64,000 nt of DNA, from NCBI RefSeq assembly GCF_030409905.1, contig NZ_JAUFQT010000001.1, positions 890,001 through 954,000 of the forward strand, written 5' to 3'. Made by a program: the position numbers and the translations under genes. The notes beneath the pieces are model-generated. The model did no database searches. It was not told the origin of the DNA and saw only the letters and a program-made list of their open reading frames with translations. Below, one piece after another: positions 28,193-61,773 of the stretch. The number at the start of each line of letters is the position of its first letter. Position 1 is the stretch's first letter. This stretch comes from Echinicola jeungdonensis. Lineage in GTDB: Bacteria; Bacteroidota; Bacteroidia; Cytophagales; Cyclobacteriaceae.

Positions 28193-31330
<3,138 letters not shown>

Positions 31331-44577: not shown

Positions 44578-44615
44578 TTAATCTGACTTTTAACGGTAGT
44601 TTTAACGGTTAAAAG
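44578..44615 (-). promoter_or_regulatory. Triple TTTAAC operator, copy 1 (upstream of susC1)
   Basis: TTAATC (44578-44583, degenerate), TTTAAC (44589-44594) and TTTAAC (44601-44606) are spaced 11 and 12 bp. They are followed by the inverted GTTAAA (44608-44613). The terminal 20 bp (44596-44615) are identical to those of copies 2 and 3. The element ends about 145 bp upstream of the susC1 ATG. It is the candidate binding site of the membrane winged-helix regulator at 61840-62988. Confidence 0.7.
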
Positions 44616-44879
44616 CGCACCCTACCCAGTATGAAAACCAGGTAATTAATGGATTTTCAAAATAAAATTTGGTTGTCGCTTTCAAAAAATTCTGCCTAAA
44701 CTCAAGCAAAAAGAATACCTAGTAATAGTTTAGTTACCCCTCATTGTTTACCCATTAATTAAATCCAGATTTCTTAACTTACATCCTCTGAAAAAAAATA
44801 GAGCTTAACCTTCAATAATGAAGTTTGGATTTCTCGGAATGCCCCCAGTTCAAATCCCTATACTCATCTCTAAAATCTA

Positions 44880-45683
44880 TTATTTCAAATCTAATATCTC
44901 AATTTTTCTAAACTCCACACCTTGCCCTTCTGACTGTAAACCAATATAACCTTGCCTTAATGGTTTCCCGTCTTTTTTCACTTTAGGGTCATACCCATTT
45001 ACCACTCCTCCACCGATTTGGGGTTTAGTGTATTGCAATACCGTATCCCCATTTATTAAGTGAGTGACCAAACTGTCCTCATAAACAATCAAATCAGCTT
45101 TCACCCATGCATTCCATTTATATGTGGGTGATGAAGAGTTGATACAATGTCTGGGATCCATTTCTCCATTGTAAAACACCTCTGTTCCTGGTGAACACAT
45201 ATTACCGGTCGGCCTTTCTACTCCTTCTTCCACTTCTGCCAACATCTGAAATTCCACGGATATTGGCCAATCCTGTTCTTTGAAAATACTTTCTGGTGAC
45301 TGGGAATGAAACATTACTCCACTATTGCGATAGGTATAGCTAGGGGCATCTTCCAGCCATTCTTCTGTAAAACGATATTCCCATTTCAAGTGAAATGAAG
45401 AAAATGGCTGTTTATAAAACAAATGCCCATACCGTTCCTCAAAACCTTCATAGCCTTCATAATTAACCTGGATTTTATCATTTACAACCCTGAATGTTTT
45501 GGCATAATTATCACCCAATTCATGATGATGGATTTTGGGCACCCAACCCTCCAGGTTTTTCCCGTTAAATAAGGAAATCCATTTTTTATTTGCTTTTGAA
45601 TTCCCGGAAGCGCAGGAAAAGCTTATTCCCAATAGAAGGATTCCTACAATTAGCTTATCTACTTTAATTTCACTTGCTAGCAT
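44880..45683 (-). CDS. DUF1080 (3-keto-disaccharide hydrolase-like) lipoprotein
   Basis: 267 residues, lipobox ISFSC. DUF1080 (concanavalin-like jelly roll) features are WISLFNGKNLEGWVPKIH near the start, FSSFHLKWEYRF, RNSGVMFHSQSPE, SVEFQMLAE and the closing LRQGYIGLQSEGQGVEFRKIEIL. Family members are known as 3-keto-glucoside/disaccharide hydrolases or are uncharacterised. It is a single gene between two hairpins and the susC1 operator. It may remove oxidised sugars from glycans, but no partner oxidoreductase is present here. Confidence 0.8.
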   Translation of the reverse strand: MLASEIKVDKLIVGILLLGISFSCASGNSKANKKWISLFNGKNLEGWVPKIHHHELGDNYAKTFRVVNDKIQVNYEGYEGFEERYGHLFYKQPFSSFHLKWEYRFTEEWLEDAPSYTYRNSGVMFHSQSPESIFKEQDWPISVEFQMLAEVEEGVERPTGNMCSPGTEVFYNGEMDPRHCINSSSPTYKWNAWVKADLIVYEDSLVTHLINGDTVLQYTKPQIGGGVVNGYDPKVKKDGKPLRQGYIGLQSEGQGVEFRKIEILDLK

Positions 45684-45768
45684 TTCGATTTAATTTATTT
45701 GCCTTCTAAACTACATAATCCCGATCATACCTTTCATCATATTCAACTTGGTATTTCTCCAAAAAATG

Positions 45769-45791
45769 AAAAAATCCCGCCCCTTCGGGGC
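45769..45791 (-). terminator. Terminator-like hairpin upstream of the DUF1080 gene
   Basis: On the minus strand, GCCCC-GAA-GGGGC (45779-45791) is followed by GGGATTTTTT (T-run at 45769-45774). It probably ends transcripts from the zincin lipoprotein gene before the DUF1080 gene. Confidence 0.6.
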
Positions 45792-45976
45792 TCAAGGATT
45801 GGAGATTATGAGAAAATAATACCTCAATTCTTGCCCGAGGTGGATCTTCCATAATTCGACCGGGCAGGTTGTTAAATTTGTTTGAGGCGGATTAGTGGAC
45901 CTCTTTTTTTCTTGAAAGAAGGTATGGCCTCAGAGAAATGGACCTAAGAAGCCTTTTTAAGGCTCCAACTAAAATA

Positions 45977-45998
45977 ACCCCGGGTCAAAACCCGGGGT
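45977..45998 (-). terminator. GC-rich hairpin downstream of the zincin gene
   Basis: ACCCCGGGT (45977-45985) and ACCCGGGGT (45990-45998) form a perfect 9-bp stem with a 4-nt loop, followed on the minus strand by TATTTTAG. A small second hairpin, AACCCTGGAAGGGTT, is at 46020-46034. It lies about 90 bp after the zincin stop; either a terminator or an intergenic repeat. Confidence 0.5.
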
Positions 45999-46089
45999 AT
46001 CTCGTCAAAATTTCTAAACAACCCTGGAAGGGTTAAACTAATTTGAGTTCCAGTTCTGGAATAAATGTGCATAATCAAATCACCTTTTA

Positions 46090-47298
46090 TCAAAAACTTG
46101 GAAGTCCATCATCTTTCATTCCCTGCATGATCAGCGCATGCCAAATATAAAGCTCAGGACTTCCTGAATCTTCATGGGCACCATTGATACCATAGGGCCA
46201 AAAATGAGTTCCATCTCCTCTGAGGATTGAATTATTGTCTCCTGATAAAATCTGTATTATTTCATTGGCCCTTGGACCGACATAAGTCCCCCCTTGAATG
46301 AGTTCTCCCCATTTCCAATGGGTTCCTACCCCCACAACATGGGCAATTTCATGCATTGCCGTTCCTGTTCTTTGATAACTGACATTCGATCCTATCCGAA
46401 TGGTGCCATTAATATTGCCGTCTGCTGTAGGCACTCCTGGGTTATAGTATACATTAATATGTTTTTCAATACTTGTATAACTATTATAGTATTCAACTGC
46501 CTTTTTAAATGCTTCCTTAATCCGGTCATAATTTTCCTGTAATTCGGTAGAAGGATTGGGATCCTCATGGAGGGTAAAAGTGATATTGCCCTTCTTCCGG
46601 GTTGTCACCTCAAGGGTATTTCCATAACTGACCCCTTTTTCATTTTTTGCATAAGCCCTGAGGTAATATTTCTTTTCAGGATCCAAACCTTTTATTTCAG
46701 CTAGAAAGCTGTTCATTCCATTACCCATCTCTATAACCTCCTCATCAATGGAAGGAGAAGGTTCTAAATCCCAGCATACCCCTTTCTCAGTTATTGGAAA
46801 ACCTCCATCATTGTTTAACGCCACCCTTAGATGGATGCTATGGGCTGCCGAGATATATTTCACACCTGTTTCCACTTCAGGCTTGTCGGCAGCAGGAGTC
46901 TCGAATTTCAATTTCTCTCCATATCCAACTCCAATTTCATTTACTGCATAGGCCCTTGCACTGTATTTTATTCCGTCATTAAGTGCGTTTAATGATGCAC
47001 TAAACTCTCCACTTCCTTTTACAGATGATGCTTCGATATAATGGTTTTCCAAAGTCGGTACTCCATCTCCCTCCATAAAACAAACTCCTCTTTCCAAAAC
47101 AGCATATCCCCCATCATTTTCAACTTTACTATCAAAAATGGCACTAGAATTGGTGACCTGAACCATTTCCAAACCTTGCAAGGTAGGCACCTCCCCTTCA
47201 TTGTTGGATGGCTCTTCTTCAATTTTCGGTGGGTCGACTTCCTGATTACAACTTAAAATCAACAGGACTAATAAACTGATATTTATTATTTTATTCAT
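46090..47298 (-). CDS. Lipoprotein with two Ig/FnIII-like domains and a zincin metalloprotease domain
   Basis: 402 residues, lipobox LLILSC. After an acidic linker, two Ig/FnIII-like repeats follow (about 40-130 and 140-235), sharing the motifs GGYAVLERGVCF / GGFPITEKGVCW and KYSARAYAVNEIGVGYG / KYYLRAYAKNEKGVSYG. The C-terminal domain (about 245-402) carries AMHEIAHVVGVGTHW with His316, Glu317, His320 and His327: a zinc site HExxHxxGxxxH, one residue longer than the canonical metzincin HExxHxxGxxH. The segment after it (ANEIIQILSGDNN, HFWPYGIN, HALIMQGMKDDG) recurs in secreted Bacteroidota zincins. It is probably a surface peptidase. It stands alone between terminators at 47489-47533 and 45977-45998. 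Confidence 0.7.
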   Translation of the reverse strand: MNKIINISLLVLLILSCNQEVDPPKIEEEPSNNEGEVPTLQGLEMVQVTNSSAIFDSKVENDGGYAVLERGVCFMEGDGVPTLENHYIEASSVKGSGEFSASLNALNDGIKYSARAYAVNEIGVGYGEKLKFETPAADKPEVETGVKYISAAHSIHLRVALNNDGGFPITEKGVCWDLEPSPSIDEEVIEMGNGMNSFLAEIKGLDPEKKYYLRAYAKNEKGVSYGNTLEVTTRKKGNITFTLHEDPNPSTELQENYDRIKEAFKKAVEYYNSYTSIEKHINVYYNPGVPTADGNINGTIRIGSNVSYQRTGTAMHEIAHVVGVGTHWKWGELIQGGTYVGPRANEIIQILSGDNNSILRGDGTHFWPYGINGAHEDSGSPELYIWHALIMQGMKDDGLPSF

Positions 47299-47488
47299 TT
47301 AAGAATACATTTGAAAGGAATTAATAAAAAATCCTTTTTGGTTAATAAATCAATAAAAACAAATCCCCTTCTGCAAGAGATAAAAACCAGTTGGGTAACC
47401 ATTTTTTAAGGGAGGTAATAAAAATTGTTTTAGGGTCAAAACCACGGTAACCTTGGACTGTTAACAGTGGATTGTCGCTCCCTAATTG

Positions 47489-47533
47489 AAAAAACAACCC
47501 TCCCCAACCTCAAAAAGAGCCAGGGAAGGTTGT
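47489..47533 (-). terminator. Rho-independent terminator of susCD unit 2
   Basis: On the minus strand ACAACCTTCCC (47523-47533) pairs with GGGAGGGTTGT (47494-47504), an 11-bp stem with one mismatch. A T-run (47489-47494) follows directly. It begins 13 bp after the stop of the DUF4998 gene. Confidence 0.75.
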
Positions 47534-47545
47534 CAAACCCCAAAA

Positions 47546-48745
47546 TTAATTCTGTACAAAATCAAATGCACGGATATTGCAATACCTACCTGGCCAACCA
47601 TCTGGCTGCGTTGTCAGGTAACCCACTGCTATTTGTACCGGTCCATCTTGAATTTCAAAATCAACTTTTAAATCAAGAACGGATTTTCCACTATAGATAT
47701 GGCTATAACCTATTGCAGAATCAATATTTTCCACATCCGGCAACTCATCTCCATAGGCTACAACCAAGTAAGCATTATCATTTTCAGTCAAATTGGTATT
47801 CATAAGATCCTTAATCTTAAAGGTAAAGCTCCCTGCAGGTACCTCAAAAGTCTGATAAATCTTTCCATTAGAAACAGCAGGAGCACCCCAACCTGATTCA
47901 AGGTTGAAAATATTATTATTCCATTCGTCCCAGCCTCCCTGGCCATTATGGATTTTTGCTGCATCATTAGTGATCCATCCAGCTTGCGTTCCCCAACGTC
48001 CACTCCTAGTAGCTGCTTCAAATGGAACCTGCATATTTCGCATATAAGTAACTTTAGGCACAATAGCTTCAAAACTGGAAGGGAAAGTGTCCAAGCTGTG
48101 TTGTTCAGGCTTGTAGTAGGTTCTGACCTTAAATTCATTACCCACTTGATAATTTTCCAATACTACCTCCGAAACATCAATTGGGATCTGAATCGTGTGC
48201 TCATCCTCATTTACATCAATGTATTTGACTTCAGTGTAGATTGCCCCGGAAGCTTCATCTGCTTCTCCAAAAACCAATTTGGTATTAGAATTCCAAACAG
48301 TCAAGTTAGAGGCCTCCAAAGGTCTTTGGTTCAAAGAATTCTGGTACCGCTCTCCATAAGCAGCACCCGTTGCAAACACGGGTACAGATTCATTACCTTG
48401 ATTGTCTATGGTTACTACTTCAAAGGTATAATTGTTCTCCTCCAAACCTTCGATGACATATTTCATCGTATCCACAGCAGAAGTCCTTTCAACTGGAACC
48501 GTAACAGATTCCGCTCCGGCATTCCAGGAAATTCTGGCTTGCTCTATTTTGGGATCTGCTTTAAACAGCCCCCAAATCATTACTTTATTTTCCCCTCCAA
48601 TTATCTGAAGGGAATCGATTTTTCCACTATAGGTCTTTTCGCCATTGGGGACAAAATCCTTGTAGGCATCCATCTCACTGCATGACCAGAAGGCCATGGT
48701 GAGCAGGGACAATGCCAAAATATATTTATTGATATGCTTGATCAT
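47546..48745 (-). CDS. DUF4998/DUF5013-type surface glycan-binding lipoprotein
   Basis: 399 residues, lipobox MAFWSC. The N-terminal half has a DUF4998-like beta domain: YSGKIDSLQIIGGENKVMIWG, then MKYVIEGLEENNYTFEVVTIDNQGNES. The C-terminal half is a DUF5013-like jelly roll (RSGRWGTQAGWITNDAAKIHNGQGGWDEW..., YQTFEVPAGSFTFKI). Such proteins occupy the SusE/SusF position downstream of SusD and act as outer-membrane surface glycan-binding proteins. No catalytic signature is visible. It is the last gene of unit 2 and is followed by a strong terminator. Confidence 0.75.
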   Translation of the reverse strand: MIKHINKYILALSLLTMAFWSCSEMDAYKDFVPNGEKTYSGKIDSLQIIGGENKVMIWGLFKADPKIEQARISWNAGAESVTVPVERTSAVDTMKYVIEGLEENNYTFEVVTIDNQGNESVPVFATGAAYGERYQNSLNQRPLEASNLTVWNSNTKLVFGEADEASGAIYTEVKYIDVNEDEHTIQIPIDVSEVVLENYQVGNEFKVRTYYKPEQHSLDTFPSSFEAIVPKVTYMRNMQVPFEAATRSGRWGTQAGWITNDAAKIHNGQGGWDEWNNNIFNLESGWGAPAVSNGKIYQTFEVPAGSFTFKIKDLMNTNLTENDNAYLVVAYGDELPDVENIDSAIGYSHIYSGKSVLDLKVDFEIQDGPVQIAVGYLTTQPDGWPGRYCNIRAFDFVQN

Positions 48746-48771
48746 GTTAATTGATTTTAAGATGGAACAAA

Positions 48772-49971
48772 TTATCTTGGATCACCATAAACCTGGATTT
48801 CTCCAATGGCCATATAGGAACTACCCCCCCAATTTTGTATAGACCGGATTCTCAAATACCTTACCTTAGGAGCATCGATATCAAACTCCCAATTGAAGCC
48901 TTCTACAGCTACGCGGTAATCTTCGTCACTTTGTTGACCAAAGGGCAATCCAGAAGGTTTGGTTGCATTATAAGTACCCAATTTCACCCAGTTGTCATAA
49001 CTTCCATCAGATGGTGGGTCATTAGAACCCCATACTTCAAATTTTTTCAGGTTACCCAAGTAATAGTAAGTCCTTCCATTAAAATACTCTGGATAGTCCC
49101 AAATGACAATTCGGCTCATTTTTGCTTCCACTCCTGTATCAATAGTAATGGTATGTGGACCGGATATTATAGATTGGGTCATGTATATGGCTGGCCAGTT
49201 CATGATTTCTCCATCCCACATACCAGCCATAGAAGTGGATGGGTGATGGGGAGCATCGCCAGGGAGATGGACTCCTCTATAGTTTGACTTAGGCAAGGCT
49301 GATTCATAAAGTGGATAAATATCCGAAAAAACAGTGTCTGTATAATTCAGCCATCTATCTCTTACTGTAAAGGCAAATTCATGCTTTAAGGTATCCATCC
49401 CGCGAAGGGCATAATCAATGGAATCTGTAGAAGTATAAATACTATTAGGGTCAGCCACCCATTCCCCATATTCATTCTGCTCCATGATTAGAATGGCAAC
49501 ATCTTCCCTGTTGGGATTTAATGCATCGACCTGGATTCCTCCAAAAGAAGCTTTCACCTCCATGGATTCATAAACATCCCATAATGGAGCTTTTTCTGGT
49601 TTGATGGTTACTGTAACCGGTTCTGATTCTTGCTGAGCCCGGTTTACTGCATATAATTTCACCTCATGTTCCTCAGTATCGGCGAAGCCTTCCACCATAA
49701 GGGAATTGTTATAGTAGGAGGATTTCACCTCTGCAGTCTTTCCGTTTGATCGCTCAAATTCTGCTTTGACATACAATAAATCCCCATCATCTGGAAGCGC
49801 ATAGGAAATCTTTGCTTTCCCAGGAAGGTTTTCTACAGTGGTTTCATATACCATTCCAGGTGCCTTACCGGAATCCGAATAAGGTGAATGGATTTCTTCT
49901 ACCTCACAGGCCCAGGTCCCTGCTAAGAGGGACATGGCCATGATGTATTTATATTTTTGGAATAATTTCAT
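48772..49971 (-). CDS. DUF4959/DUF5000 surface lipoprotein with a discoidin-like C-terminus
   Basis: 399 residues, lipobox LLAGTWAC. It has an N-terminal DUF4959-like Ig domain (PGKAKISYALPDDGDLLYVKAEF), a middle DUF5126-like domain (KAPLWDVYESMEVKASFGGIQVDALNPN) and a C-terminal DUF5000/F5-8-type-C carbohydrate-binding jelly roll (PHTITIDTGVEAKMSRIVIWDY, KKFEVWGSND, VRYLRIRSIQNWGGSSYMAIGEIQVYG). This triple is characteristic of surface glycan-binding proteins next to SusD. It lies 25 bp after susD2 and 26 bp before the DUF4998 gene, hence co-transcribed. Confidence 0.8.
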   Translation of the reverse strand: MKLFQKYKYIMAMSLLAGTWACEVEEIHSPYSDSGKAPGMVYETTVENLPGKAKISYALPDDGDLLYVKAEFERSNGKTAEVKSSYYNNSLMVEGFADTEEHEVKLYAVNRAQQESEPVTVTIKPEKAPLWDVYESMEVKASFGGIQVDALNPNREDVAILIMEQNEYGEWVADPNSIYTSTDSIDYALRGMDTLKHEFAFTVRDRWLNYTDTVFSDIYPLYESALPKSNYRGVHLPGDAPHHPSTSMAGMWDGEIMNWPAIYMTQSIISGPHTITIDTGVEAKMSRIVIWDYPEYFNGRTYYYLGNLKKFEVWGSNDPPSDGSYDNWVKLGTYNATKPSGLPFGQQSDEDYRVAVEGFNWEFDIDAPKVRYLRIRSIQNWGGSSYMAIGEIQVYGDPR

Positions 49972-49996
49972 TTTTGGATCAATTTAAATTTTCAGA

Positions 49997-51904
49997 TTAC
50001 CAACCTACATTTTGAACCAGGTTGGGATTTTGAATTAAAGTTCCCTCATTGATCGGCCAGAAATAATCCCTAGGAGAAACAAATTTTTGGGAATAGATGG
50101 TATTAACCTGATAATAGCTGTTGGTAGTTTCACCCTGCATATTCCAACCTTGGATAGGCTGGTTCAACATTTCATTGGCTTTTTTCCACCTTTTAAGATC
50201 CCATAACCTGTGGCCTTCAAAGGCCAATTCGATTAATCTTTCCTGATGGATAATTTCACGCAAACCGTTTTTGGTGCTGTACTTATCAGGTTGGGTGGAG
50301 TAATTTTGCCAAGCCTCCTGAACCCCGGCCAATCCAGCTCTTTCACGGATCTTATCCAAATATTCAAATACCGTAGCATTAGGGCCTTCCACCTCATTAA
50401 GGGCTTCTGCATACATCAGGTAAAGGTCAGCCAACCTGATCTCAGGCCAGTCATAAGTTCTGTAATTGGCACCTGAACTACTCATTGCTTGGTTCCAATC
50501 CACCAGTTTTTTAATAAAATAACCGGTTACATTTTTATGGAATGCATGGTTACTTCCTGCATAGTCCACAAACTTAGACCTTACCACATAGGTATCTTCA
50601 TCGGAATTGGAAGGGCTATCATACTTATACCATTTTCCGCCATCAAAACTTAAAGAAGCATAGAATCGTGGTTCCCGGTCAAAATTGATTCTTGCTGTTT
50701 CAAATCCTTCCTCTATATAGAAGCGCTCTTCAGAGGTGGCAATTCTCAATTCATCGATATCACTGAAGTCCAAAGTTCTGTCCTCATTGATAGGCACCCC
50801 ATTTTCAGAATAAAACTGACGGGCAATTTTAAGAGGGGCTGAAAAGATTTTTCTGGCATTATTGTGATTATGTTGGGTAGAAAGTGGCGCCATGGCATTG
50901 GCCTGTAAATCCCAGCCAGCTGGAGAATTTGAATTTCCCCAAACATGTTCTAAGTTCCATCGCTCACAAACTGCCTGACGAATGCTCAGTTCAGTTCTGG
51001 TGGTATCGGTAATTTCAACACCAACTTCATTGAACTCATACAATTTATGACCTGCTTCCTCAGCAACAGCAATAGCTTCTTCTGCAGCATCCGCCGCCAA
51101 CCTCCATTTGTTTTCATCATAGTCCAAATTAAACAACTGTTCTCCCCCTGGACTTTTTAAGGAAGCCATATCCGGGTTACCATTAAATAATGGACTGGCA
51201 GCCATCAAAAGCAACTTAGCTTTGAGGCCTTTGGCCACAGGTCTGGTCACCCTGCCCAGTTCGGTAATTCTATCAGATATGGACATAGGGAGTTTTTCTG
51301 CTGATTGATCCAATAAATCGGAAATATAACTAACCACCTCATCCACAGGCTGTCTCTCCACATTGACCAACTCTTCAGGAGCATCAATGGGTAAATTCTC
51401 ATCTACAATTGGAATTGGCCCATACATTCTCAACAGGTAGAAATGAAAATAAGCTTTCAAAAACTCCGCCTCACCAATCCATCTTCTTCTTTCGATTTCA
51501 CCAAGATCAGGAACGGCTCCTTGTTCCAAATTTTCTATGAAAATATTACAATGGCGGATTCCTACGAAAATCCCTCCATTCCATACATCCACGTAGGGAT
51601 TGGATACTCTTTGGTTCCCTCTTGCAATTTCAAAAGGGTTACTCAGTAAACTTGTTTGATAGGGAATCCACATTTCATCCCCAGCCAAAAAACCTAAATT
51701 CCCGTTGGGATCGCCATTATTTGGCATATAGGAATAACAGGTAAACAGGTATTTTTCCGCTTCATTTCTCAGTTTAAAAGCATGGTCAATGGTGGCCACA
51801 TTATCCGGCACCACATCCACAAAACTCTCGCAAGCTGTTCCACCCAACAGTCCCATAAGACCCAGGGCACAAGCTGTTATTTTATATTGAAATTTATTCA
51901 TCAT
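49997..51904 (-). CDS. SusD/RagB-family lipoprotein 2
   Basis: 635 residues from the ATG at 51904 (a second ATG follows at 51901). The open frame extends 23 codons further into susC2, but only MMNKFQYKITACALGLMGLLGGTAC makes a lipoprotein signal. SusD marks are SFVDVVPDNVATID, GEAEFLKAYFHFYLLRMYGPIPIV, PVAKGLKAKLLLMAASPLFN, WPEIRLADLYLMYAEALNEVEG and IIHQERLIELAFEGHRLWDLKRW. It starts 10 nt after the susC2 stop. It should bind a different glycan from SusD1, with which it shares only family-level motifs. Confidence 0.94.
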   Translation of the reverse strand: MMNKFQYKITACALGLMGLLGGTACESFVDVVPDNVATIDHAFKLRNEAEKYLFTCYSYMPNNGDPNGNLGFLAGDEMWIPYQTSLLSNPFEIARGNQRVSNPYVDVWNGGIFVGIRHCNIFIENLEQGAVPDLGEIERRRWIGEAEFLKAYFHFYLLRMYGPIPIVDENLPIDAPEELVNVERQPVDEVVSYISDLLDQSAEKLPMSISDRITELGRVTRPVAKGLKAKLLLMAASPLFNGNPDMASLKSPGGEQLFNLDYDENKWRLAADAAEEAIAVAEEAGHKLYEFNEVGVEITDTTRTELSIRQAVCERWNLEHVWGNSNSPAGWDLQANAMAPLSTQHNHNNARKIFSAPLKIARQFYSENGVPINEDRTLDFSDIDELRIATSEERFYIEEGFETARINFDREPRFYASLSFDGGKWYKYDSPSNSDEDTYVVRSKFVDYAGSNHAFHKNVTGYFIKKLVDWNQAMSSSGANYRTYDWPEIRLADLYLMYAEALNEVEGPNATVFEYLDKIRERAGLAGVQEAWQNYSTQPDKYSTKNGLREIIHQERLIELAFEGHRLWDLKRWKKANEMLNQPIQGWNMQGETTNSYYQVNTIYSQKFVSPRDYFWPINEGTLIQNPNLVQNVGW

Positions 51905-51914
51905 TAATACTTTT

Positions 51915-54900
51915 TTAGAAATCAACCACAACACCCAAGTTATATACTGATTGCACCGGATAGCCCAGTCCATTTCCTCCCATTTCGGGATCCCACAGAT
52001 CGAACTTGCTCCATACGCCTAGATTGGTTCCATTGGCATAAATCCTACAATGGTTAACCTTAAACCGGTCGGTAATATGCTTAGGGACTGTATATCCCAA
52101 TTCCACATTTTTCAGCCTTAAGAAGGCACCATTTCGCATCCACCAAGAAGATGGTTGATTGTTATTTTCAACAAAATAATTGCTCAATCGAGGCCAGAAA
52201 GCATACAAATCCCTGTTTTCTTCAGACCAATGGCTTTCAGCAATCACATCCAAAAGTCCATTTTGTGCGCCACCATTAATCACAAATGGTGAAATGTTTT
52301 GAGAATTAATAAAAAGCGAGGTACGGGCAACTCCTTGGAAAAAGGCAGATATATCCCAGTTTTTAAAACCAAAAGTACCACCAAAACCATATACAATTTC
52401 AGGAGTTGTAGGATGACCAATTGGCACCTGGTCCAAAGAGGAAATCACGCCGTCATCATTCATATCGTAATACTTGATATCACCGCCACTGTATTCACCA
52501 AATTGGGCAGGAGAGTTGGCTACCTCTTCATCATCCACAAATAAACGTTCGGCGATATATCCAAAAGGTTGACCAATCCTTTGCCCTACTCTTGATAGGT
52601 AACTTACTTCCTCAGGATAGGCATTTTCGTCTCTCTTAAGAATTTCACTGGTCGCATAAGTGAAATTCCCTCTTAAATTCAACCAGGTATCACGTCCAAT
52701 GGACTTGTTATACCTTAAGGTCAAATCTATACCTTTACTCATGGCCTCACCGGTATTAGCAGATGGTTGGGCCATTAAGCCCATGGTTGAGCCAATATGT
52801 GAACGTACTTCAAGGATATTATACCTGTTCTGTTGGAAGGCATCAAAAGTAACATCAAAGGCATTGAACATGGTCAAGTCAAAACCTAAGTTGATCTGTC
52901 TTGATTTTTCCCAGGTAATGTTTCTATTGGGATATCTGGAAATGGATACTCCAGGGCGGTAATATCCAAATTCCTCACCAAATGTCGCTCCATAACCACC
53001 ATTGTTTAGGTTAACTTCGGAAAGGTAGAAGAACCTGTCTTCATCCCGGCCTATAGCATCATTACCGATCCAACCCAAAGTACCTCTTAATTTCAAATGA
53101 TCGATGGCACCTTTGAGCGGATCAAAGAAGTCTTCATTAGAAATACGATAGGCCAATCCAATGGAAGGGAAGAAACCAAAGCGGTAGTTTTCTGCAAAAC
53201 GCTCAGACCCATTATAACCAAAGTTAAATTCCGCCAAATAGCGGTCATCATATCCATAAGTAAATCGGCCTGAAACCCCCGTATTTCTAAAAGGAAGGGA
53301 TTCCTGCACGGTAAACTTACTCCCATCCTCATAGCTATTGAAAATAGCTATTAACATTCCGGAAACCGCATGTTTATCATTAAAGGTCCTGGAATAATCA
53401 AAAGCTGACTGCACATAAGAACGGAGAGTAATGTCCCTGTCTCCTGGCTCAAAGCTCAGGTATTCGGATCCAGTTGGTCCTACAGAACTCGGACCTCCAT
53501 CATTCAATACAGAAAGATCTATTTCTCCAGTTGCCGGATTTAGTCTAGAACTGTAATAAAAAGGATTGTAGGACCTAGCCACATCAAATCGGGCATATCT
53601 TTTCAAATACCCCATAGTACGGAAACTCAAACCTTCTGTAATCATTCCCAAATCCTGTTTGATCTCCATTTGAGGTTGGATCATGGAAGTTTTATAGGTT
53701 TGATAACCTTTTACCATTTCCGCATATGGATTTGTCAACAGGGTAGTGCTTCCTCTTCCGGTAATGGCACCTCCAAACAAAGGATGTTCTACATAAGGCA
53801 ACAACTCCTTAGGATACACAGCAGGGAATTTGACGGGGTTAGACCAAATCGCTCGGTTAAAGGTAGTTGCCCCTCCGCCAATTGGACCATTGTAATCATC
53901 AAACTGGCCATACATTTTCACACTAAGATCCGTAGTTGGGGTCAAAGTAACATCCACATTGGTACGCAAAGAATAATTTCTCAATTTAATGTTACTGTTG
54001 AAATTGTTGATAGGATCAACCTTAAGCACCCCATTATCCTGATTAAATGTACCAGCGATATAGAATCTCGCTTTATCACCCCCACCACTGGCACTCATAT
54101 TATAGCCTTGGTTAATCGTATAATCCTTAATCAACTGTTGGATCCAATTATTGCTCGGGTAAAGCAAAGGATTGGTACCAGCCTCAGTATTGACGATTTT
54201 GGTTTGAGAATAAGGCAATACAGCATTCCGGTCCCTGGTTAGGGCTGCCTCATTGGCTAGATTCATATAGGTGATATTGTCCGCAAACTGGAAGTTTTTG
54301 GTATTGGAAGAAACACGGGTTTCGGCTCGGAAGTGAAATTTTGTTTCTCCTTTTGTACCTGTTTTGGTATTGATCAATACCACACCGTTGGCACCTCTTG
54401 CACCATAAACAGCAGAAGCGGTAGCATCTTTCAAAACAGAGAATGATTCAATATCATCCGGCTGCAAACGGGCCATATCAGTTGTGGTAGATTCCACTCC
54501 ATCAATCAAAATTAAAGGGTTTACCTTACCTGCACCAAAAGAGCCCAAGCCCCGGATAAAGAACTGGGAATTATCCATGCCTGGCTCACCACTTCTTTGG
54601 AAAGCAATCATTCCCGACACCCGGCCTGCTAACATATTGGTCAGGTTACTGGTGGGTCCTTTTAGTTCTTTCGGGTTAACAGTGGTAATGGAACTGACCA
54701 AACTGGCCTTTTTCTGCATACCGTAACCTACTACAACTGCTTCATCAAGACTTTGAAGGTCCTCCTGAAGGGTTACATTGATTTTATTCCGGCCATTGAT
54801 GGGCACTTTTGTTTTTTGGAAGCCAATAAAACTGAAAACCAGATTCCCATCAGCTGGAGCCATTATTTCATAATTTCCATCGATATCAGTAACTACCCCT

Positions 54901-55071
54901 CTGGTAGTTCCCTCAACGAGGATATTGGCTCCAATAATTGTTTCTCCACAAGGGTCCGTCGGTACCCGTCACCTTAATGTCATTGCCCTGAGCCAGCGTT
55001 TCCTGGAGGCCAAACGCCATCCATAAGCCAGCACAAAGCAGCAACACTTTGTGTTGTAATCGTCTTTTCAT
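51915..55071 (-). CDS. SusC/RagA-family transporter 2, apparently frameshifted near its N-terminus
   Basis: The barrel and plug frame is open from about 54968 to 51915: TDPCGETIIGANILVEGTT, LDEAVVVGYGMQKKASLVS, IESFSVLKDATASAVYGARGANGVVLINTKTG, ending YNLGVVVDF. The first ATG in that frame (54863) would omit the signal peptide. In another frame, the ATG at 55071 starts a normal SusC signal: MKRRLQHKVLLLCAGLWMAF, then GLQETLAQGNDIKVTGT. The two join at about 54960. Adding two bases after ACC restores VTGTVTDPCGE, the standard start of the carboxypeptidase-regulatory domain. So this is either a real 2-nt deletion inactivating the gene or a sequence error. The downstream susD2 and binding-protein genes are intact. 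Two long motifs of the barrel domain show no further damage. Confidence 0.85.
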
Positions 55072-55348
55072 AGGGTCAAGAATTGATTAAAATTTGTTAA
55101 TTGATTGTTGAATTAAAAAACAAAGGGCATGTCTTTTCAAAAAGAAGTTGGCCAATAGAAAACACCAACAATTGTCGGGGTAATTCATAATGGTTTTGGG
55201 TTTGATTTAATTAATTGGACTATTTTCGAAGAGCTTTTTCAGGCTGATTTTGAATCAAGGATTATGACCAAACAAAAACCTGATTCCAGATACCTTTTCA
55301 GCAATTTCGATGGTTTGAATATGGTAAATAACAAATAAAAAGTACGTA

Positions 55349-55386
55349 TTTAACGTGGTTTTAACTGTAGTTTTAACGGTTAAAAG
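55349..55386 (-). promoter_or_regulatory. Triple TTTAAC operator, copy 2 (upstream of susC2)
   Basis: TTTAAC occurs at 55349-55354, 55360-55365 and 55372-55377 (spacing 11 and 12 bp), followed by the inverted GTTAAA at 55379-55384. The last 20 bp (55367-55386) are identical to copies 1 and 3. A left flank of about 90 bp (including ATGGTTTGAATATGG, 55309-55323) is also similar to the flank of copy 3. The distance to the susC2 ATG at 55071 is about 280 bp, implying a long leader. Confidence 0.72.
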
Positions 55387-55850
55387 ACCTACTCAAAAGC
55401 TTTTAATTGTGGTTTTTACACTTTTATTAGCGATAAATAATTCTTCTTTATTTCCCCTTATTTTTGAAAATAATAATAGGTTTGGATGTGACACCCCATC
55501 TCCTATTCTAAATTTTCCATTTCGAATCCGAATATTCCAGATTTATAATCTTTGGAAATGGAAAATAGAAGCCATTGTTGTGCTGACTTTACCTGGCCTT
55601 AGCAAGATTTAGGCTTTCACTAAAAAGTGTAGGCTGGAATTATTTATTAAATACTAAAGATTGCGAAATCCTCTCTATTGAGATTCGGGTTTCCAAACCC
55701 CAAATAATAGTGAAAGAATAGTCTAATCAGGGCTATATTCAACATTACGGATTAATATTTAATTTAATAATAGAAAAGTGTTTGCACTTTCCAACATTTA
55801 AGCATTTCAGAACGCTTAATTCAACCATTCAAACCAACCCCTCCAAACAG
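55387..55850. other. Spacer right of operator copy 2
   Basis: No gene is supported. A short plus-strand open frame (55355-55612) overlaps the operator and has no family features. The stretch separates the small lipoprotein gene from the susC2 promoter. Confidence 0.4.
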
Positions 55851-55886
55851 AAAATGGGTCAGACAAAATTATGCCTGACCCATTTT
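55851..55886 (-). terminator. Terminator-like hairpin after the small lipoprotein gene
   Basis: AAAATGGGTCAG (55851-55862) and CTGACCCATTTT (55875-55886) form a perfect 12-bp stem with a 12-nt loop. It lies about 40 bp past the stop of the gene at 55928. T-rich arms on both sides mean it could work in both directions. Confidence 0.7.
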
Positions 55887-55927
55887 AGTTGAATAAATGT
55901 TATCTCCCCTTTATTGGAGATACCTAT

Positions 55928-56572
55928 TTACTTCACGAAAATCCTTCTCATTTTTGACCTTTCTGCTGTATTGGACTTTGTCTTAAGCTCTTGCCCTGCA
56001 TAGCGTTCAACATCCCCTTCATAAGTCATCTCTAAACTCACTCCTGATTTTGTATTGGTTATTTCACCATCACTATAATAAGTTGCAGTTCCAAAACCTG
56101 TAAAACTCACTTTATATTTTTCACCATTTTCAGAAACAGCAAATGTTCCGCTTGTTGGTCGAATGCTTATCCCTTCATTTATGGTGTAGTCATTTTTTGA
56201 TGAATCTATTATCAGGTCGGAACCTAATGCAATTTCCCCCCATTTAGTATAGGTATTCGATTGGGCATCTTCATATTTACCCAAACTGTAAGTTCCGGTA
56301 GCTAAATCATCTTCTTTGGATGAAAATAGTTCAAAATAAACTACTGATGCAGCCTTTTCACTGTTCGCCCCCCTGGCCGAAAAATCAAGGTTATAGGAAC
56401 TTCCTATTTGCCCATAATCTTCAATATATCCTTGGGACAGGTTAATAGTAATATCATCTACTGAAACCGCCCCAAAATTCCCCCCAGGCTCATTATCACC
56501 TTTAGATTCATCACTACATCCCGTACCAACCAATGCAAAGAGTATCGCTATAATGAAATATTTCTTTCTCAT
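55928..56572 (-). CDS. Small lipoprotein of unknown function
   Basis: 214 residues from the ATG at 56572 (MRKKYFIIAILFALVGTGC, clear lipobox); the longer open frame to 56638 adds 22 residues before the signal and runs into the hairpin. The mature part is beta-rich and acidic: VSVDDITINLSQGYIEDYGQIGSSYNLDFS, VVYFELFSSKEDDLATGTYSLG, TSGTFAVSENGEKYKVSFTGFGTATYYSD. It ends with a basic segment (ERSKMRRIFVK). The alternating pattern resembles small lipoproteins that hold a single eight-stranded or jelly-roll domain next to secreted glycanases, but I do not recognise a family. It lies downstream of the GH128-like gene with a hairpin between. Confidence 0.7.
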   Translation of the reverse strand: MRKKYFIIAILFALVGTGCSDESKGDNEPGGNFGAVSVDDITINLSQGYIEDYGQIGSSYNLDFSARGANSEKAASVVYFELFSSKEDDLATGTYSLGKYEDAQSNTYTKWGEIALGSDLIIDSSKNDYTINEGISIRPTSGTFAVSENGEKYKVSFTGFGTATYYSDGEITNTKSGVSLEMTYEGDVERYAGQELKTKSNTAERSKMRRIFVK

Positions 56573-56608
56573 AGTATTTTTATAATGATTAACTAAATTA
56601 TTAATCCT

Positions 56609-56645
56609 AAAAAGCAGCCCTAAGGCACTTAAAAGCACCTTAGGG
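56609..56645 (-). terminator. Hairpin between the GH128-like gene and the small lipoprotein gene
   Basis: CCCTAAGG (56618-56625) pairs with CCTTAGGG (56638-56645); on the minus strand CTGCTTTTTAGG follows. It starts 14 bp after the GH128 stop and ends about 40 bp before the next ATG, so it may be a partial terminator that sets the ratio of the two products. Confidence 0.55.
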
Positions 56646-56658
56646 GTTTAGGAAAAAA

Positions 56659-59600
56659 CTATTTTTTAATTATTCGGGTTGTTAGACCTGTTTTCAAACT
56701 CCTGGCCACATAAAGCCCTGTTGGTAGGTTACTAAAATCAAACCTTTCCTGAACTGAAGAGGTTTGCAGTCTTTTTACGATTACTCCAATGGAGTTGGAT
56801 AAAATGATCATATCATTGGCCTCACTAGACCTGAAGGAAACTGTCCCTTCAGTTAAAGTAGGATAGGCAATAAATTCACCCTTTAATTTCCAACGTCCAT
56901 ATATCTCCATATCTGAGCTATTGTTTCCCTCTATGCTGGATATTTCACTGGTAAAATCAGCATTTAAATACCACCCCATAAAACGATAACTAGAAGCTAT
57001 TGCACTTTGTAATTCTAATACTGTACCTACTTCCTGCTCTGTTGGGTTTGGATTTACCACTCCTTCAAAATCAACATTATGGTAAGTAATGGCATATACT
57101 TCAACAGGAATTTCCTCCCAAATGGCAAATAGTGTAATACTTCCATCAGCATCTGCGGGAATAATGGCAGATAACTCCGTCACCAATTCACCATCAGCTT
57201 TTTTCCACCCCTGAAACAAATGGGTATCAGTATCTTCCATTTCCGGAAGATCAGGAATTTCATCAACCGAGGTAAATCGCATTTCCTGTGGCATTTGACC
57301 ATATTCTGATTCAAACGATATAACATATTGGAAGGGCGCTGGGGTAATTTCTTCTACAAATAAATCCCCAATCTCTCCAGAATTCAGGGCATAATTATAT
57401 ATCCTAAACTCATCCACATTTCCTTTCATCAGAGGGTCAGGCCATTGCGATTTCCCGATCCAGTTTTGGGTCGTTGTTCCCAGATCGGTTGGGTTAAGAT
57501 CCATATTTTCATTTCGACCCACTTCCTTACCATCAATATAAAGAATCCCTATTGTATCTTTTTGGGTTAATGCCAAGTGATGCCATTCATTTAGTGAAAG
57601 CGGTGAAAGTCCATTAATCCGTTGTTCATTCCCTCCTTTTTTAATAGCATATCTTACCGTATTATTGCCACTTTTTGGAGTCAAGAACATATAGGTGCCA
57701 GTTCCTGAGCCAAAATCAAAGATTCTATTCCAGGTAGGATTTTCTTCCAGTTTAACCCAAACTGAAATGGTGTATTCTTTTATGCTTTCCATCACCCCAT
57801 CTACCAAGGCTACATGGGAATTATTATTTCCACTTAGAAAAGCTGATTTCCCAGCTTTTCCTTCCGACCAGAAAGCTCCACCAACGAGTTTTCCATCCAA
57901 ACCGGACCAAGAGTCCTCGGCAATTTCTCCTTCCCCTTCATCAAATCTGAGGTAAATATACTTATCTGATTGCTTAGTGCTAACCCGATTCGAATGCGGT
58001 GACTCACCAAACTCATTTACAGCCACCACTAAATAATAAGTAATGTTCCCATCGAAATTATCCTTAAAATCCGTAGTAGTTATTCCTTCAGCAATTGTTT
58101 CAAAAGGACCTCCCCTTGAGGAAGACTTTTTGATTTTATAGGAAGTGGCAAAGGCTGCTTCCTCCCAGTTCAAGGAAGCTTCATTTTCATTGACCTCAAT
58201 GAACAAATTTCCGGGTGCCTGAGGAGGATCATTCCTCAGAATTTTCACCGTTCGGGAATAGACGGATTCGGTATCCTTATAACTTGTAGCCTTTACGCGA
58301 TAATTAGCGGAATTGTGTCCAAGACTATCGGTGTATTCTACTGTGGTTGATCCATATTTATAATCCTTTGCTGCAAAAAGTGTATCTATTGGGGAGTAAG
58401 AACTTTCACTGTCAAGTTTCCTTTCAATGATATAGTTCTTTCCTGTTTCACTGTTATGGTCATACCAGGAAAGCGTTACATTATGGTAATCTTCTGACTC
58501 CCAAGATCTACAAAACGGGGGTGCAATCTTCCATATATGTTTATATTCATTCTTCTTTTTGAACCCTACTTCAGATTTAAAAGCATTAAAAGCCTCCCCT
58601 GCAGGAGTTAGTTCGCCGTTAATTTCAAGTTGACGAGCATCATTTACCCATTGATACAAGAATTGGTGCTCAAATATATCCACGGTTTCGAAATGATTGA
58701 GAACCTCCAACAGTTTATTTTTTTGCCTTTCTGCATTGGCAGCCGTAAGGGGAAGTGCAACATTTACTTCATTTCCATTTTTATCTAAAATTGGATATCC
58801 GTTTACATCCACGCGGACTCCATTATCATCTGGCCATTTTGAAGCATCCGCACCATTGGTCCAGTTGGCACCATTGTTCCATTCTGTTATCCAAATGGGT
58901 CTTCTCGGGGTCTCTCCTGCAGCCATTCCTCCAAAAGAGGCCATATAAATAAACCAATCCCACCAACCTGTAGATTGATCCTGGTAGGCATGAGTTGCGA
59001 TAAAATCTACTCGCAAATTCGTGCTGTCACAAATGTGCATAAATTCTGTAAGCCAAGCCCTGGGCATGTCTGCTGGAGCTGGAGACCCGATTCTTAAGCC
59101 AGATTCAAACAAATTTGGCCATTGCCTGATTGCTTCAGTAACCGGCATATTGGCTTGATCAGGTCTTTCAGGTTCATTAAATCCAAGAACATGACTGGTA
59201 TTTTGCCTATTGTTGATAAGGCCGTAGCTATCCCAACCGGCATTATGACGCATGGGAATATATTCAGTATCTAAGGTGGATTGCCCTCCCGCACTCCAAT
59301 CATATACAACATCTGCATTTATAGGACCTATATTTCCCGCAGTCCCTTTTTTGGAAGTCCATCGCCATCTGAATACTCTCACAAATGAGATAAAACTTTC
59401 ACCTGTGGTTTCGGAGGCAACAAAACCTTCAGGCATCGTACTGATTTCCAAATCCTCATCGCTGGCAATAAACATCCTACTATGTCCTGTACCATCAGGA
59501 TTATTGGCAAAGGTTGCTGCAAAACCTTTCTTTAATTTGAAGGATTTGATACTATTATTCCATTCCTCAAGATTGTTATAATAGGTTTCTATTTCAATTG

Positions 59601-61074
59601 CTTTGGAATCCCCTCCGAAATTGGGTTCACTATATACAATCAGTGCACTTTCATTGGCAATTTTCATCCCATTTGGAATGATAACACAACCGGACCCATA
59701 AATTTCAACCCTGTCGATAGTTTCATCAAAAACACGCCCGTTTACCGTAACTTGGCCTGATAAATCAGATAAAAACTGTGATGGCCGGAACTCGGAAAAA
59801 TACAACCAGGAATCATTTGACTGTAGATCAATAGAACTATTGACCAATGGATCCCTGCCACTCAGATGGAGTTCTGATTCCCCGCTTACGGAAATATGGC
59901 TATTGATAAGTTTGGTGGCTGAAAAGGTTTCATCTGAAATACTTTTTGAAATGGTCTCCACTTCCATATTGGGTAGTGGGGCAAAGGCTCCATCTTCATC
60001 AAGAGTCACCGATGACAAATCAATATCTACGGCCCCATCCTTGTAATTCTTACCGATAATTATCCTGGATACGGCATCAAGTTTTTTAACCTCAGGATCA
60101 GCTACTATCCAAATTCCGTTACCATCATTTTGAAACATCAGGTAATAGGTACCTGCTTCCGATGTGGTGAAGGATAATGACCCATCAAATAGCTGTTGCT
60201 TTTCATTATATGATCCTTCGAAGCTTGTTTCACTAATAAGATTATTCCCTGTTATTTCTTTGCTCACTCCTACTTTTAGAGAATTAGGGGAACCATTATC
60301 CCAGTAGCCTTGAAGATAACTAAAATTGTAAGCTGTGTTCGCTTCTAATTCAACGGGATAATAATAAGAGGAACCATTGGTCACCCCACTTTCCCAGCGA
60401 AGGAGGATTAAGGGATAAGTATAAGTTTCTCCATTGTAGGAGGTGCCATTCAAGGGATCCATTATCCTAACCCCACTGCCACTGTTGGTGGTTTTCCAGG
60501 GAACAGTGCCCGCACCATTATTCCCCCAGTCTATTTCATTTGGAGTAACAATTTCTCCGTATCCAAAAATATCAGAAACAATATTTTCCCCATAGGTGGA
60601 AACTAAAGGATTTTCAACGCCATCTACGATATCATAAATAGAAGTAGCTGGTTTGGAAACTATATAAAAGCCGTTTTGATAAATATGTACCTTGTTTCCT
60701 TCCACTGCAAAACGAAATGTTTGTTCCTTTGTAGAAGAAAAGTAAAGCATATCCGAAACGGAAAGCGGAGCCCTCCAGTTGAATGTTTCAGTATCTGCAG
60801 AAGTTCTGAAACCATTTAAGTCTCCTTTTCTGGCTTCAATATCAAGCCCTCTGCCCTCCGCTGAATTTATCCGGGCCTTCACCTCTAAGGTAAAATCCCC
60901 TGGTAATTGCGTTGGGATAACTACAGTGTCCACATCAGTCGCACTGTTAAAAGACTTTACCCCATAAAGTTGTACTGGCAAAGTCTCCTTTTCCGTTAAG
61001 TTGGGTTCTTGGGCCCGGATTTGGTTTGAAAGCATAAACAATGCAATCAAAACTAAAAGTAAACGTACTTCCAT
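56659..61074 (-). CDS. Giant secreted GH128-like endo-beta-1,3-glycanase with lectin, FnIII, InlB-type repeats and T9SS sorting domain
   Basis: 1471 residues, signal peptide ending SNQIRAQ. An N-terminal jelly-roll region (about 25-450) is followed by a beta/gamma-crystallin-like segment (about 490-560, LIVYSEPNFGGDSKAIEI). The GH128 catalytic barrel (about 580-840) has acid/base Glu634 in LGFNEPERPDQ and nucleophile Glu731 in PIWITEWNNGANW, with THAYQDQSTGWWDWF between. Then come two FnIII-type domains (about 850-1030), a LamG/concanavalin-like domain (about 1040-1220), two Listeria-Bacteroides (InlB B-type) repeats ending LFAIWEE and IYGRWK, and a C-terminal type A sorting domain (FSNLPTGLYVARSLKTGLTTRIIKK). 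GH128 members cut beta-1,3-glucans; here a beta-1,3-linked galactan is also conceivable. The protein should be surface-attached through T9SS. Confidence 0.85.
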   Translation of the reverse strand: MEVRLLLVLIALFMLSNQIRAQEPNLTEKETLPVQLYGVKSFNSATDVDTVVIPTQLPGDFTLEVKARINSAEGRGLDIEARKGDLNGFRTSADTETFNWRAPLSVSDMLYFSSTKEQTFRFAVEGNKVHIYQNGFYIVSKPATSIYDIVDGVENPLVSTYGENIVSDIFGYGEIVTPNEIDWGNNGAGTVPWKTTNSGSGVRIMDPLNGTSYNGETYTYPLILLRWESGVTNGSSYYYPVELEANTAYNFSYLQGYWDNGSPNSLKVGVSKEITGNNLISETSFEGSYNEKQQLFDGSLSFTTSEAGTYYLMFQNDGNGIWIVADPEVKKLDAVSRIIIGKNYKDGAVDIDLSSVTLDEDGAFAPLPNMEVETISKSISDETFSATKLINSHISVSGESELHLSGRDPLVNSSIDLQSNDSWLYFSEFRPSQFLSDLSGQVTVNGRVFDETIDRVEIYGSGCVIIPNGMKIANESALIVYSEPNFGGDSKAIEIETYYNNLEEWNNSIKSFKLKKGFAATFANNPDGTGHSRMFIASDEDLEISTMPEGFVASETTGESFISFVRVFRWRWTSKKGTAGNIGPINADVVYDWSAGGQSTLDTEYIPMRHNAGWDSYGLINNRQNTSHVLGFNEPERPDQANMPVTEAIRQWPNLFESGLRIGSPAPADMPRAWLTEFMHICDSTNLRVDFIATHAYQDQSTGWWDWFIYMASFGGMAAGETPRRPIWITEWNNGANWTNGADASKWPDDNGVRVDVNGYPILDKNGNEVNVALPLTAANAERQKNKLLEVLNHFETVDIFEHQFLYQWVNDARQLEINGELTPAGEAFNAFKSEVGFKKKNEYKHIWKIAPPFCRSWESEDYHNVTLSWYDHNSETGKNYIIERKLDSESSYSPIDTLFAAKDYKYGSTTVEYTDSLGHNSANYRVKATSYKDTESVYSRTVKILRNDPPQAPGNLFIEVNENEASLNWEEAAFATSYKIKKSSSRGGPFETIAEGITTTDFKDNFDGNITYYLVVAVNEFGESPHSNRVSTKQSDKYIYLRFDEGEGEIAEDSWSGLDGKLVGGAFWSEGKAGKSAFLSGNNNSHVALVDGVMESIKEYTISVWVKLEENPTWNRIFDFGSGTGTYMFLTPKSGNNTVRYAIKKGGNEQRINGLSPLSLNEWHHLALTQKDTIGILYIDGKEVGRNENMDLNPTDLGTTTQNWIGKSQWPDPLMKGNVDEFRIYNYALNSGEIGDLFVEEITPAPFQYVISFESEYGQMPQEMRFTSVDEIPDLPEMEDTDTHLFQGWKKADGELVTELSAIIPADADGSITLFAIWEEIPVEVYAITYHNVDFEGVVNPNPTEQEVGTVLELQSAIASSYRFMGWYLNADFTSEISSIEGNNSSDMEIYGRWKLKGEFIAYPTLTEGTVSFRSSEANDMIILSNSIGVIVKRLQTSSVQERFDFSNLPTGLYVARSLKTGLTTRIIKK

Positions 61075-61735
61075 AGATTGATTTATTTTTTTGTAAATAG
61101 TTTAGGTTATTATTAGAGTTTATTTTTTCCGACATAAGGGAATCTTGCTGTATCAATTGTTCATTAGAAAAACTTTATTGAATAACCTTTAGTAGACTCA
61201 AAGACAAAGCCCATTGGATATTTCTTGATCCTTTGATATGGTTTTCATTGATCACTTACCTTCGCATTTGAGCTGTTATCCAAGAAATTTTAATGAAATC
61301 CAATCATCCCATTTTTTTGAGAATTTCAGATTTTATCATCTCCCGGAGTAAATTTCAATTAAGTGTCATTGCTGCTTATCTTCTTTTGACCGGAGATAAA
61401 AAACAGGAAAGCCATTTGGTTTAAAAAAAGGAAACCAGCAACCTGGCCTTATTAAAAATTACAGCTAATTGCCTTTGCATTTTTTTCTGTAATGAAAACA
61501 GGGGACTCTTAATCACTTTGACATGGACAAAAATTCTTATTCCTTGAAAAAACCAGTTGTTGTAGATTTTATTCATAATCATTTTGGGTTATAATTGTTT
61601 ATTGTATTTTCTTTCTAAACTCCTTATCATACCAATTTCAGAATGAAGCATTTGACAAAACAAACTTTTATTTCCAATTCGCTTCCCAGTATGATCAATG
61701 GTTTGAATATGAAGAATTAAAAATAAAAGCGTACA
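61075..61735. other. Long leader or promoter region of the GH128-like gene
   Basis: No gene is supported in these 660 bp. The right part (about 61650-61735) resembles the flank of operator copy 2, including ATGGTTTGAATATG (61699-61712) and the AAATAAAA run. The two control regions therefore look like duplicates. The rest may be an untranslated leader, or may contain a second promoter. Confidence 0.45.
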
Positions 61736-61773
61736 TTTAACGTGTATTTAACTGTAGTTTTAACGGTTAAAAG
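61736..61773. promoter_or_regulatory. Triple TTTAAC operator, copy 3 (between the GH128-like and regulator genes)
   Basis: TTTAAC lies at 61736-61741, 61747-61752 and 61759-61764 (spacing 11 and 12 bp), followed by inverted GTTAAA at 61766-61771. The 20 bp at 61754-61773 are identical to copies 1 and 2. The site is 66 bp before the regulator ATG (plus strand) and 660 bp before the GH128-like gene (minus strand). It could thus serve both activation of the enzyme gene and autoregulation. Confidence 0.72.

What the first reader, a model, noticed from the sequence alone, without database searches (positions are those of the whole stretch)
44578..61773. Three copies of a triple TTTAAC operator share an identical 20-bp core
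Seen: at 44578-44615, 55349-55386 and 61736-61773 three TTTAAC-type half-sites occur with the same 11/12-bp spacing, ending in an identical 20-bp core (44596-44615, 55367-55386, 61754-61773). The sites lie upstream of susC1, upstream of susC2 and between GH128 and the regulator. The near one-turn spacing is what winged-helix proteins binding in tandem on one DNA face need. The sites define a likely regulon joining both susCD units, the GH128-like enzyme and possibly the regulator itself.
Basis: partly seen in the sequence, partly recalled or inferred. Interest (0 to 1): 0.85.

Follow-up and report, generated by a model that had tools for sequence, protein, structure and literature searches.

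The report
Operator array of membrane sugar regulator
Three copies of a DNA switch sit in front of two sugar-uptake gene sets and one sugar-cutting enzyme gene in a marine-type bacterium, and the same switch lies beside the gene for one family of membrane-bound regulators in many related bacteria, so it is very probably that regulator's landing site.

Summary
The arrays are at the stated places, and their exact dyad TTTTAACGGTTAAAA occurs only three times in the 4.53 Mb genome. Two corrections: a fourth, inverted half-site was missed, and the first repeat of site 1 is degenerate.

The decisive evidence is comparative. A 34-bp array pattern fixed on close relatives recurs, with up to 3 mismatches, upstream of the regulator gene in 69 of 80 fetched family members. 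With up to 1 mismatch it occurs in 18 of 390 family genomes, all of which encode the protein family. On the target side, 18 of 69 arrays have a perfect -7 box (TAnnTTTG) exactly 24 nt away, against one at any other offset; the regulator side shows no phasing.

Best reading: the cognate operator of an uncharacterised membrane-tethered, PhoB-like winged-helix activator, with a local regulon. In this genome it is present in three copies. One drives a SusCD unit whose 82%-identical counterparts in two same-genus genomes sit behind ECF sigma/FecR genes and carry an STN-like N-terminus; here and in one relative that N-terminus is different and shorter, suggesting regulatory capture. Binding, activation and ligand are untested.

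The parts
44578..44615 (+). operator array site 1 upstream of susC1: half-sites 44578-44583 (degenerate TTAATC), 44589-44594, 44601-44606, inverted 44608-44613
55349..55386 (+). operator array site 2 upstream of susC2: half-sites 55349-55354, 55360-55365, 55372-55377, inverted 55379-55384
61736..61773 (+). operator array site 3 between the GH128-like gene and the regulator: half-sites 61736-61741, 61747-61752, 61759-61764, inverted 61766-61771
44546..44553 (-). candidate -7 box TTCATTTA, 24 nt from site 1 (weak, 4 of 6 consensus positions)
   Evidence: counted by eye; position by comparison
55316..55323 (-). candidate -7 box CATATTCA, 25 nt from site 2 (weak, 3 of 6)
   Evidence: counted by eye
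61704..61711 (-). candidate -7 box CATATTCA, 24 nt from site 3 (weak, 3 of 6)
   Evidence: counted by eye
61840..62988 (+). regulator, 382 aa: PhoB-like winged helix (about 3-104), predicted transmembrane helix 116-137, predicted periplasmic alpha/beta domain (about 139-382)
41465..44434 (-). susC1 (TonB-dependent glycan importer); its orthologue is divergent from the regulator in nine of the relatives fetched
39764..41449 (-). susD1
51915..55071 (-). susC2; apparent frame break between the signal-peptide frame (54913-55071) and the main frame (51915-54863); no room for an STN region before the CarbopepD domain
49997..51973 (-). susD2
56659..61074 (-).

Best explanation
The three sites are copies of the cognate operator of the regulator at 61840, a membrane-tethered one-component transcription factor. 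Several winged-helix domains bind the direct repeats TTTAAC(GGT) head-to-tail on one DNA face at 11/12-bp spacing, anchored by the dyad TAACnGTTA at the end away from the target promoter. The promoter-proximal repeat ends 24 nt before the -7 box of the target gene, next to the -33 region, so bound regulator can recruit RNA polymerase, much as PhoB does at a pho box (recalled). The periplasmic domain probably senses a glycan fragment, possibly uronate-containing. The regulon is local: the susC1, susC2 and GH128-like transcription units, with the regulator gene next to site 3. In this lineage the operator-promoter was copied so that each unit has its own. Shown by computation: sites, conservation, co-occurrence, phasing in relatives, predicted fold. 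Inferred: binding, activation, ligand, order of duplication.
Against: No binding or expression data. The -7 boxes of the three window sites are weak (3 or 4 of 6 positions) and site 1 lacks CATATT. 51 of 69 arrays have no perfect box at offset 24. The near absence of a -33 TTTG (0 of 69 within 10 nt, 5 of 69 within 24 nt) is weak support, because that motif was not found in Flavobacterium johnsoniae promoters in general (passage of PMC7366714). 11 of 80 members have no array at up to 3 mismatches, nine of them with a divergent neighbour. 33 of the 51 family genomes with a protein match have no array at up to 1 mismatch. The roughly 620-nt leader before the GH128-like gene is long. Conservation beside a regulator could also reflect repression.
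Confidence: 0.75

Rival explanations
1. The regulator binds the array as a repressor of the divergent genes (and perhaps of itself) and is released by ligand.
For: The array lies in a shared intergenic region; array end to regulator start is 16-125 nt, median 44, in 69 loci.
Against: Where a -7 box is recognisable the array stays a fixed 24 nt upstream of it and not over it, which suits activation better. The lack of a -33 TTTG is not decisive.
Confidence: 0.18
2. Another DNA-binding protein of the cell, not the 61840 regulator, binds the arrays.
For: No direct binding data exist.
Against: With up to 1 mismatch the array was found in 0 of 339 family genomes without a match to the protein family, and the linkage is kept in 69 of 80 loci from many genera.
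Confidence: 0.06
3. The extra copies are only a by-product of recent segmental duplication, with no regulatory role for copies 1 and 2.
For: Leaders of sites 2 and 3 align over 207 bp at 73%; the first half-site of site 1 is degenerate.
Against: The 20-bp cores are identical although the leaders of sites 2 and 3 have drifted to 73%, and although outside the array the leader of site 1 gave only short pieces of at most 24 bp against the other two. Relatives show the array upstream of both susC1 and susC2 orthologues.
Confidence: 0.08

Closest known systems
PhoB and the pho box (OmpR/PhoB winged-helix regulators; pho-box features recalled)
   Same: Winged-helix fold (1gxp), direct repeats near one helical turn apart, array next to the core promoter
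   Different: No receiver domain seen; fused to a predicted transmembrane helix and periplasmic domain; array ends in an inverted half-site; Trans_reg_C score below its cut-off
ToxR/CadC-type membrane one-component regulators (recalled)
   Same: N-terminal winged helix, one transmembrane helix, periplasmic C-terminus (predicted)
   Different: The C-terminal domain's best structural matches are BcsB and the N-terminal domain of GH67 alpha-glucuronidases; neighbouring genes are mostly glycan-use genes of Bacteroidota
SusR-like PUL regulators (passages of PMC3878776 seen)
   Same: Membrane protein with periplasmic sensor and cytoplasmic DNA-binding domain acting on sus-type operons; operators described there as direct repeats
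   Different: Those repeats are described as having a long spacer; here 11/12 bp plus a dyad. Sequence relation to SusR was not tested
Hybrid two-component systems of PULs (passages of PMC3878776 seen)
   Same: PUL regulator with periplasmic sensing and direct-repeat operators
   Different: No kinase, receiver or AraC domain found in the 382-aa protein
ECF sigma / FecR anti-sigma control of SusC
   Same: By gene order, the likely control of the susC2 counterparts in G001 and G002
   Different: In the window genome and G008 the susC2 gene instead follows the array, and its STN-like region is missing

Membership tests
PhoB/OmpR-type winged-helix DNA-binding proteins | Trans_reg_C sequence profile above its cut-off | tested here: not met
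   E 0.0017, 18.8 bits against cut-off 26.2; 21 of 58 members match at E up to 0.01
PhoB/OmpR-type winged-helix DNA-binding proteins | Winged-helix fold | tested here: met
ToxR/CadC-type membrane one-component regulators | N-terminal winged helix, single transmembrane helix, periplasmic C-terminal domain | tested here: met
   Predicted only: hydrophobic helix 116-137 between the two domains; topology not measured
ToxR/CadC-type membrane one-component regulators | Control of transcription while membrane-bound | not testable with these tools
   needs experiment
SusR-like regulators | Homology to SusR | not tested
   no SusR sequence was compared
Hybrid two-component systems | Histidine kinase, receiver and AraC domains in one protein | tested here: not met
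   No such domain at E up to 10 in Pfam or NCBIfam
Cognate operator of the 61840 regulator | Conserved linkage of motif and regulator gene across genomes | tested here: met
Cognate operator of the 61840 regulator | Direct binding | not testable with these tools
   needs EMSA or footprinting

The most novel reading that the evidence does not exclude
A previously undescribed, Bacteroidota-wide family of membrane-tethered PhoB-like activators uses a glucuronidase-like periplasmic domain as glycan sensor and one conserved four-half-site operator phased to the -7 box. In this genome the operator-promoter behaved as a portable module: it captured a SusCD importer from ECF sigma/FecR control, while the importer's STN-type signalling N-terminus was exchanged near the conserved EAVVVGYG motif.
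Probability: 0.45. Interest if true: 0.75.

Novelty: new variant of a known kind. Interest (0 to 1): 0.6.

Why it matters
For Bacteroides, three types of PUL control were proposed: SusR-like, hybrid two-component and ECF sigma/anti-sigma (PMC3878776, passages). A further membrane-bound class with a defined operator would let regulons be predicted in many marine genomes. The operator triplication and the exchanged SusC N-terminus give a directly testable case of how an uptake unit changes its regulator.

Tried and rejected
Rejected: a genome-wide regulon (only the three sites). Rejected: chance repeats. Rejected: my first labels susC0/susD0 in the script; those genes are GH2 (28193-31309) and DUF2264 (25896-27941). 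Rejected: my first reading that L037, L040, L042 and L052 lack the array; those loci were not turned to the regulator strand. Searches show arrays for G009 (L037), G001 (L040) and G017 (L042); L052 (G004) still has none. Rejected: origin of the short susC2 N-terminus from susC1 (in the CarbopepD part the G008 copy is identical at 31 of 77 positions to window susC1 and 32 of 77 to the ECF-type susC2), so its donor is unknown. Not followed: exact dyads TTTTAACNGTTAAAA at single places in G055:C20, G020:C4, G006:C1:3402641 and G044:C2, none of them a place where one search found a regulator. No PDB sequence match to the family profile at E up to 1; the one weak chain (E 0.015) was not followed. 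In the 50 rows no ToxR or CadC chain appeared, which excludes nothing.

Literature: one search found 0 papers for one four-word phrase; (polysaccharide utilization + CadC) found 1, unrelated by its title; one search found 8 and listed 7, of which I saw passages of one (PMC3878776); (at least 4 of Bacteroidetes, ToxR, winged helix, membrane-bound transcription, SusC) found 5, none on this by title. Of PMC7366714 and PMC9723704 (found, 10 of 16 listed) I saw passages only. I say only that these searches of an open-licence library showed no description of this family.
Full report
OBSERVATION. The three arrays are at the stated coordinates. The 20-bp core is exact three times and has no other window match with up to 3 mismatches (shuffle mean 0.01). 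The three-repeat pattern is exact at sites 2 and 3 and has 2 mismatches at site 1. In the whole genome the dyad TTTTAACGGTTAAAA occurs exactly three times, and the fuller array TTTAAC-N5-TTTAACNGT-N5-TAACNGTTA with up to 3 mismatches occurs only at these three. With the three repeats alone one further place has 2 mismatches (C2:277888, not studied); at 3 mismatches that pattern is background (27 places against 70 for the reversed pattern).

SURROUNDINGS. Site 1 precedes susC1 (41465-44434, minus). Site 2 precedes susC2, whose signal-peptide frame starts at 55071. Site 3 lies between a GH128-like gene (56659-61074, minus) and the regulator (61840-62988, plus). The rest of the locus holds susD1, GH16, DUF2264, BNR_4, GH88-like, GH43, GH2 and 3-keto-disaccharide hydrolase genes.

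RELATIVES. The regulator has one match in its genome. Of 98 genomes searched, window genome included, 18 have a match. In 12 of those other than the window's there are 16 regulators. One search found arrays upstream of 14 of them, plus two 3-mismatch places away from any regulator (G005:C1:533514, G001:C18:433912); the reversed pattern gave 2 hits in the 13 genomes. In nine relatives the regulator is divergent from the susC1 orthologue (in G009 that gene is split in two frames); in G008 it is divergent from the susC2 orthologue (88.7% identity). In G008 no susC1 match reached E 1e-200, but only 70 of 120 first-look candidates were scored there. Record titles show that the closest named genomes are Echinicola; the window genome itself is unnamed.

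FAMILY-WIDE TEST. One search returned 80 loci (the best 80 of 174 confirmed) from genera such as Echinicola, Belliella, Flammeovirga, Aquimarina, Zobellia and Labilibaculum; by recall these span several classes of Bacteroidota. By equal contig length at least 11 of the 80 are places already seen. The array pattern had been fixed, before these loci were fetched. In the 300 nt before the regulator start the array has 0 mismatches in 51, 1 in 11, 2 in 2, 3 in 5 and more than 3 in 11 of 80. Of 1600 shuffled upstreams the best had 5 mismatches; of 80 inside-gene windows the best had 7. The dyad TAACNGTTA is present in 67 of 80 (shuffle mean 1.02, maximum 4). The loci are related, so they are not 80 independent cases. 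78 of 80 regulators have a left neighbour on the opposite strand; the two that do not, L195 and L200, lack the array (9 and 10 mismatches), but nine with a divergent neighbour lack it too. For 20 left neighbours that I chose out of the 80, Pfam hits were SusC/TonB receptors, GH2, GH43, GH88, GH115, BNR_4, 3-keto-disaccharide hydrolase, glucuronate isomerase, mannonate dehydratase, a beta-helix protein and a GFO/IDH/MocA oxidoreductase.

CO-OCCURRENCE. In 390 genomes of the same family, window genome included, 51 have a protein match at E up to 1e-15, some of them to the winged-helix part only. There are 21 arrays with up to 1 mismatch, in 18 genomes, all among those 51; 20 of the 21 adjoin a regulator gene, the exception being site 2. 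The other 33 genomes with a protein match have no such array, so the array marks a part of the family. With exactly 2 mismatches there are four: site 1, a regulator-linked site in G279, and one each in G178 and G102, which have no protein match; the reversed pattern gave 6 hits at up to 2 mismatches, so two is background. More distant members (25-29% identity, for example in G044 and G028) carry a related but different site built on the same dyad; I did not count these.

PHASING. In the 69 loci with an array, a perfect TAnnTTTG lies 24 nt beyond the promoter-proximal half-site in 18, against one at any other offset. With at least 5 of 6 positions there are 32 at offset 24, 10 at 25 and at most 7 elsewhere. 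On the regulator side the highest count is 1 perfect and 3 near-perfect. After thinning to 52 promoters under 70% identity, 14 are perfect at 24; in 500 shuffles no single offset exceeded 3. A TTTG lies within 10 nt of the array in 0 of 69 and within 24 nt in 5 of 69. TAnnTTTG is the -7 box, at -12 to -5, in Flavobacterium psychrophilum (PMC9723704, passages) and the Bacteroides primary sigma box, with TTTG near -33; [quoted passage not shown] johnsoniae (PMC7366714). The array thus ends near -37 and adjoins the -33 region, but the missing TTTG is weak evidence for activation. In ten relatives the element at that place is CATATT followed by TC, CC or GA (read by eye); in the window it is CATATTCA at sites 2 (25 nt) and 3 (24 nt) and TTCATTTA at site 1. 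These are weak matches.

CAPTURE OF susC2. At 82% identity, susC2 counterparts in G001 and G002 lie elsewhere, behind ECF sigma and FecR genes, with no array at up to 4 mismatches in their 18-kb stretches. Their N-termini carry a weak STN match (E 0.0016 and 0.00017, both below Pfam's cut-off). The G008 copy has only a signal-peptide stretch of 34 residues before its CarbopepD domain; its identity to G001 is 32 of 77 in the CarbopepD part but 111 of 117 just after EAVVVGYG, and the N-terminus is not from susC1 either (31 of 77). The window copy has the short form too, with a frame break. A second ECF/FecR-type relative (60%) exists on contig C2 of the window genome. Leaders of sites 2 and 3 align at 73% over 207 bp. 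The GH128-like protein was matched in 1 of 12 genomes searched. The order of events is inferred.

VERDICT. The finding is sound: a very probable cognate operator, conserved over many genera and locally triplicated here. Binding and activation remain to be shown. On checking I lowered the main reading from 0.80 to 0.75 and raised the repressor rival from 0.15 to 0.18, because the missing -33 motif is less telling than I first wrote.

Noticed in passing
window 54863-55071: susC2 appears frame-broken between its signal-peptide frame and the main frame; the G008 counterpart is one open frame. Could be a real mutation or an assembly error.
   Followed up: partly
window 63109-63123: TTTTAACTGTAAAAA, one mismatch from the dyad pattern, upstream of an open frame from 63204 that resembles the locus's GH43 proteins; possibly a decayed fourth site.
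   Followed up: no
L099, L101, L103: Distant family members are divergent from PSD1/PSCyt (planctomycete-type cytochrome c) genes; those of G044 and G028 (L099, L101) have a variant site GTTAAA...GTTAACnGTTAAA.
   Followed up: partly
L098 (G017:C16:80000-99999): A paralogue beside a BNR_4 gene has a changed dyad TTTACCGTAAAA, perhaps an altered specificity.
   Followed up: no
L048, L053-L060 (G091): One genome of another family in the order has 11 matches to the regulator, a possible local expansion; its genome is fragmented (750 contigs, 84% complete).
   Followed up: no
window 61074-61700: A roughly 620-nt stretch without an open frame that I found convincing by eye separates site 3 from the GH128-like gene.
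   Followed up: partly
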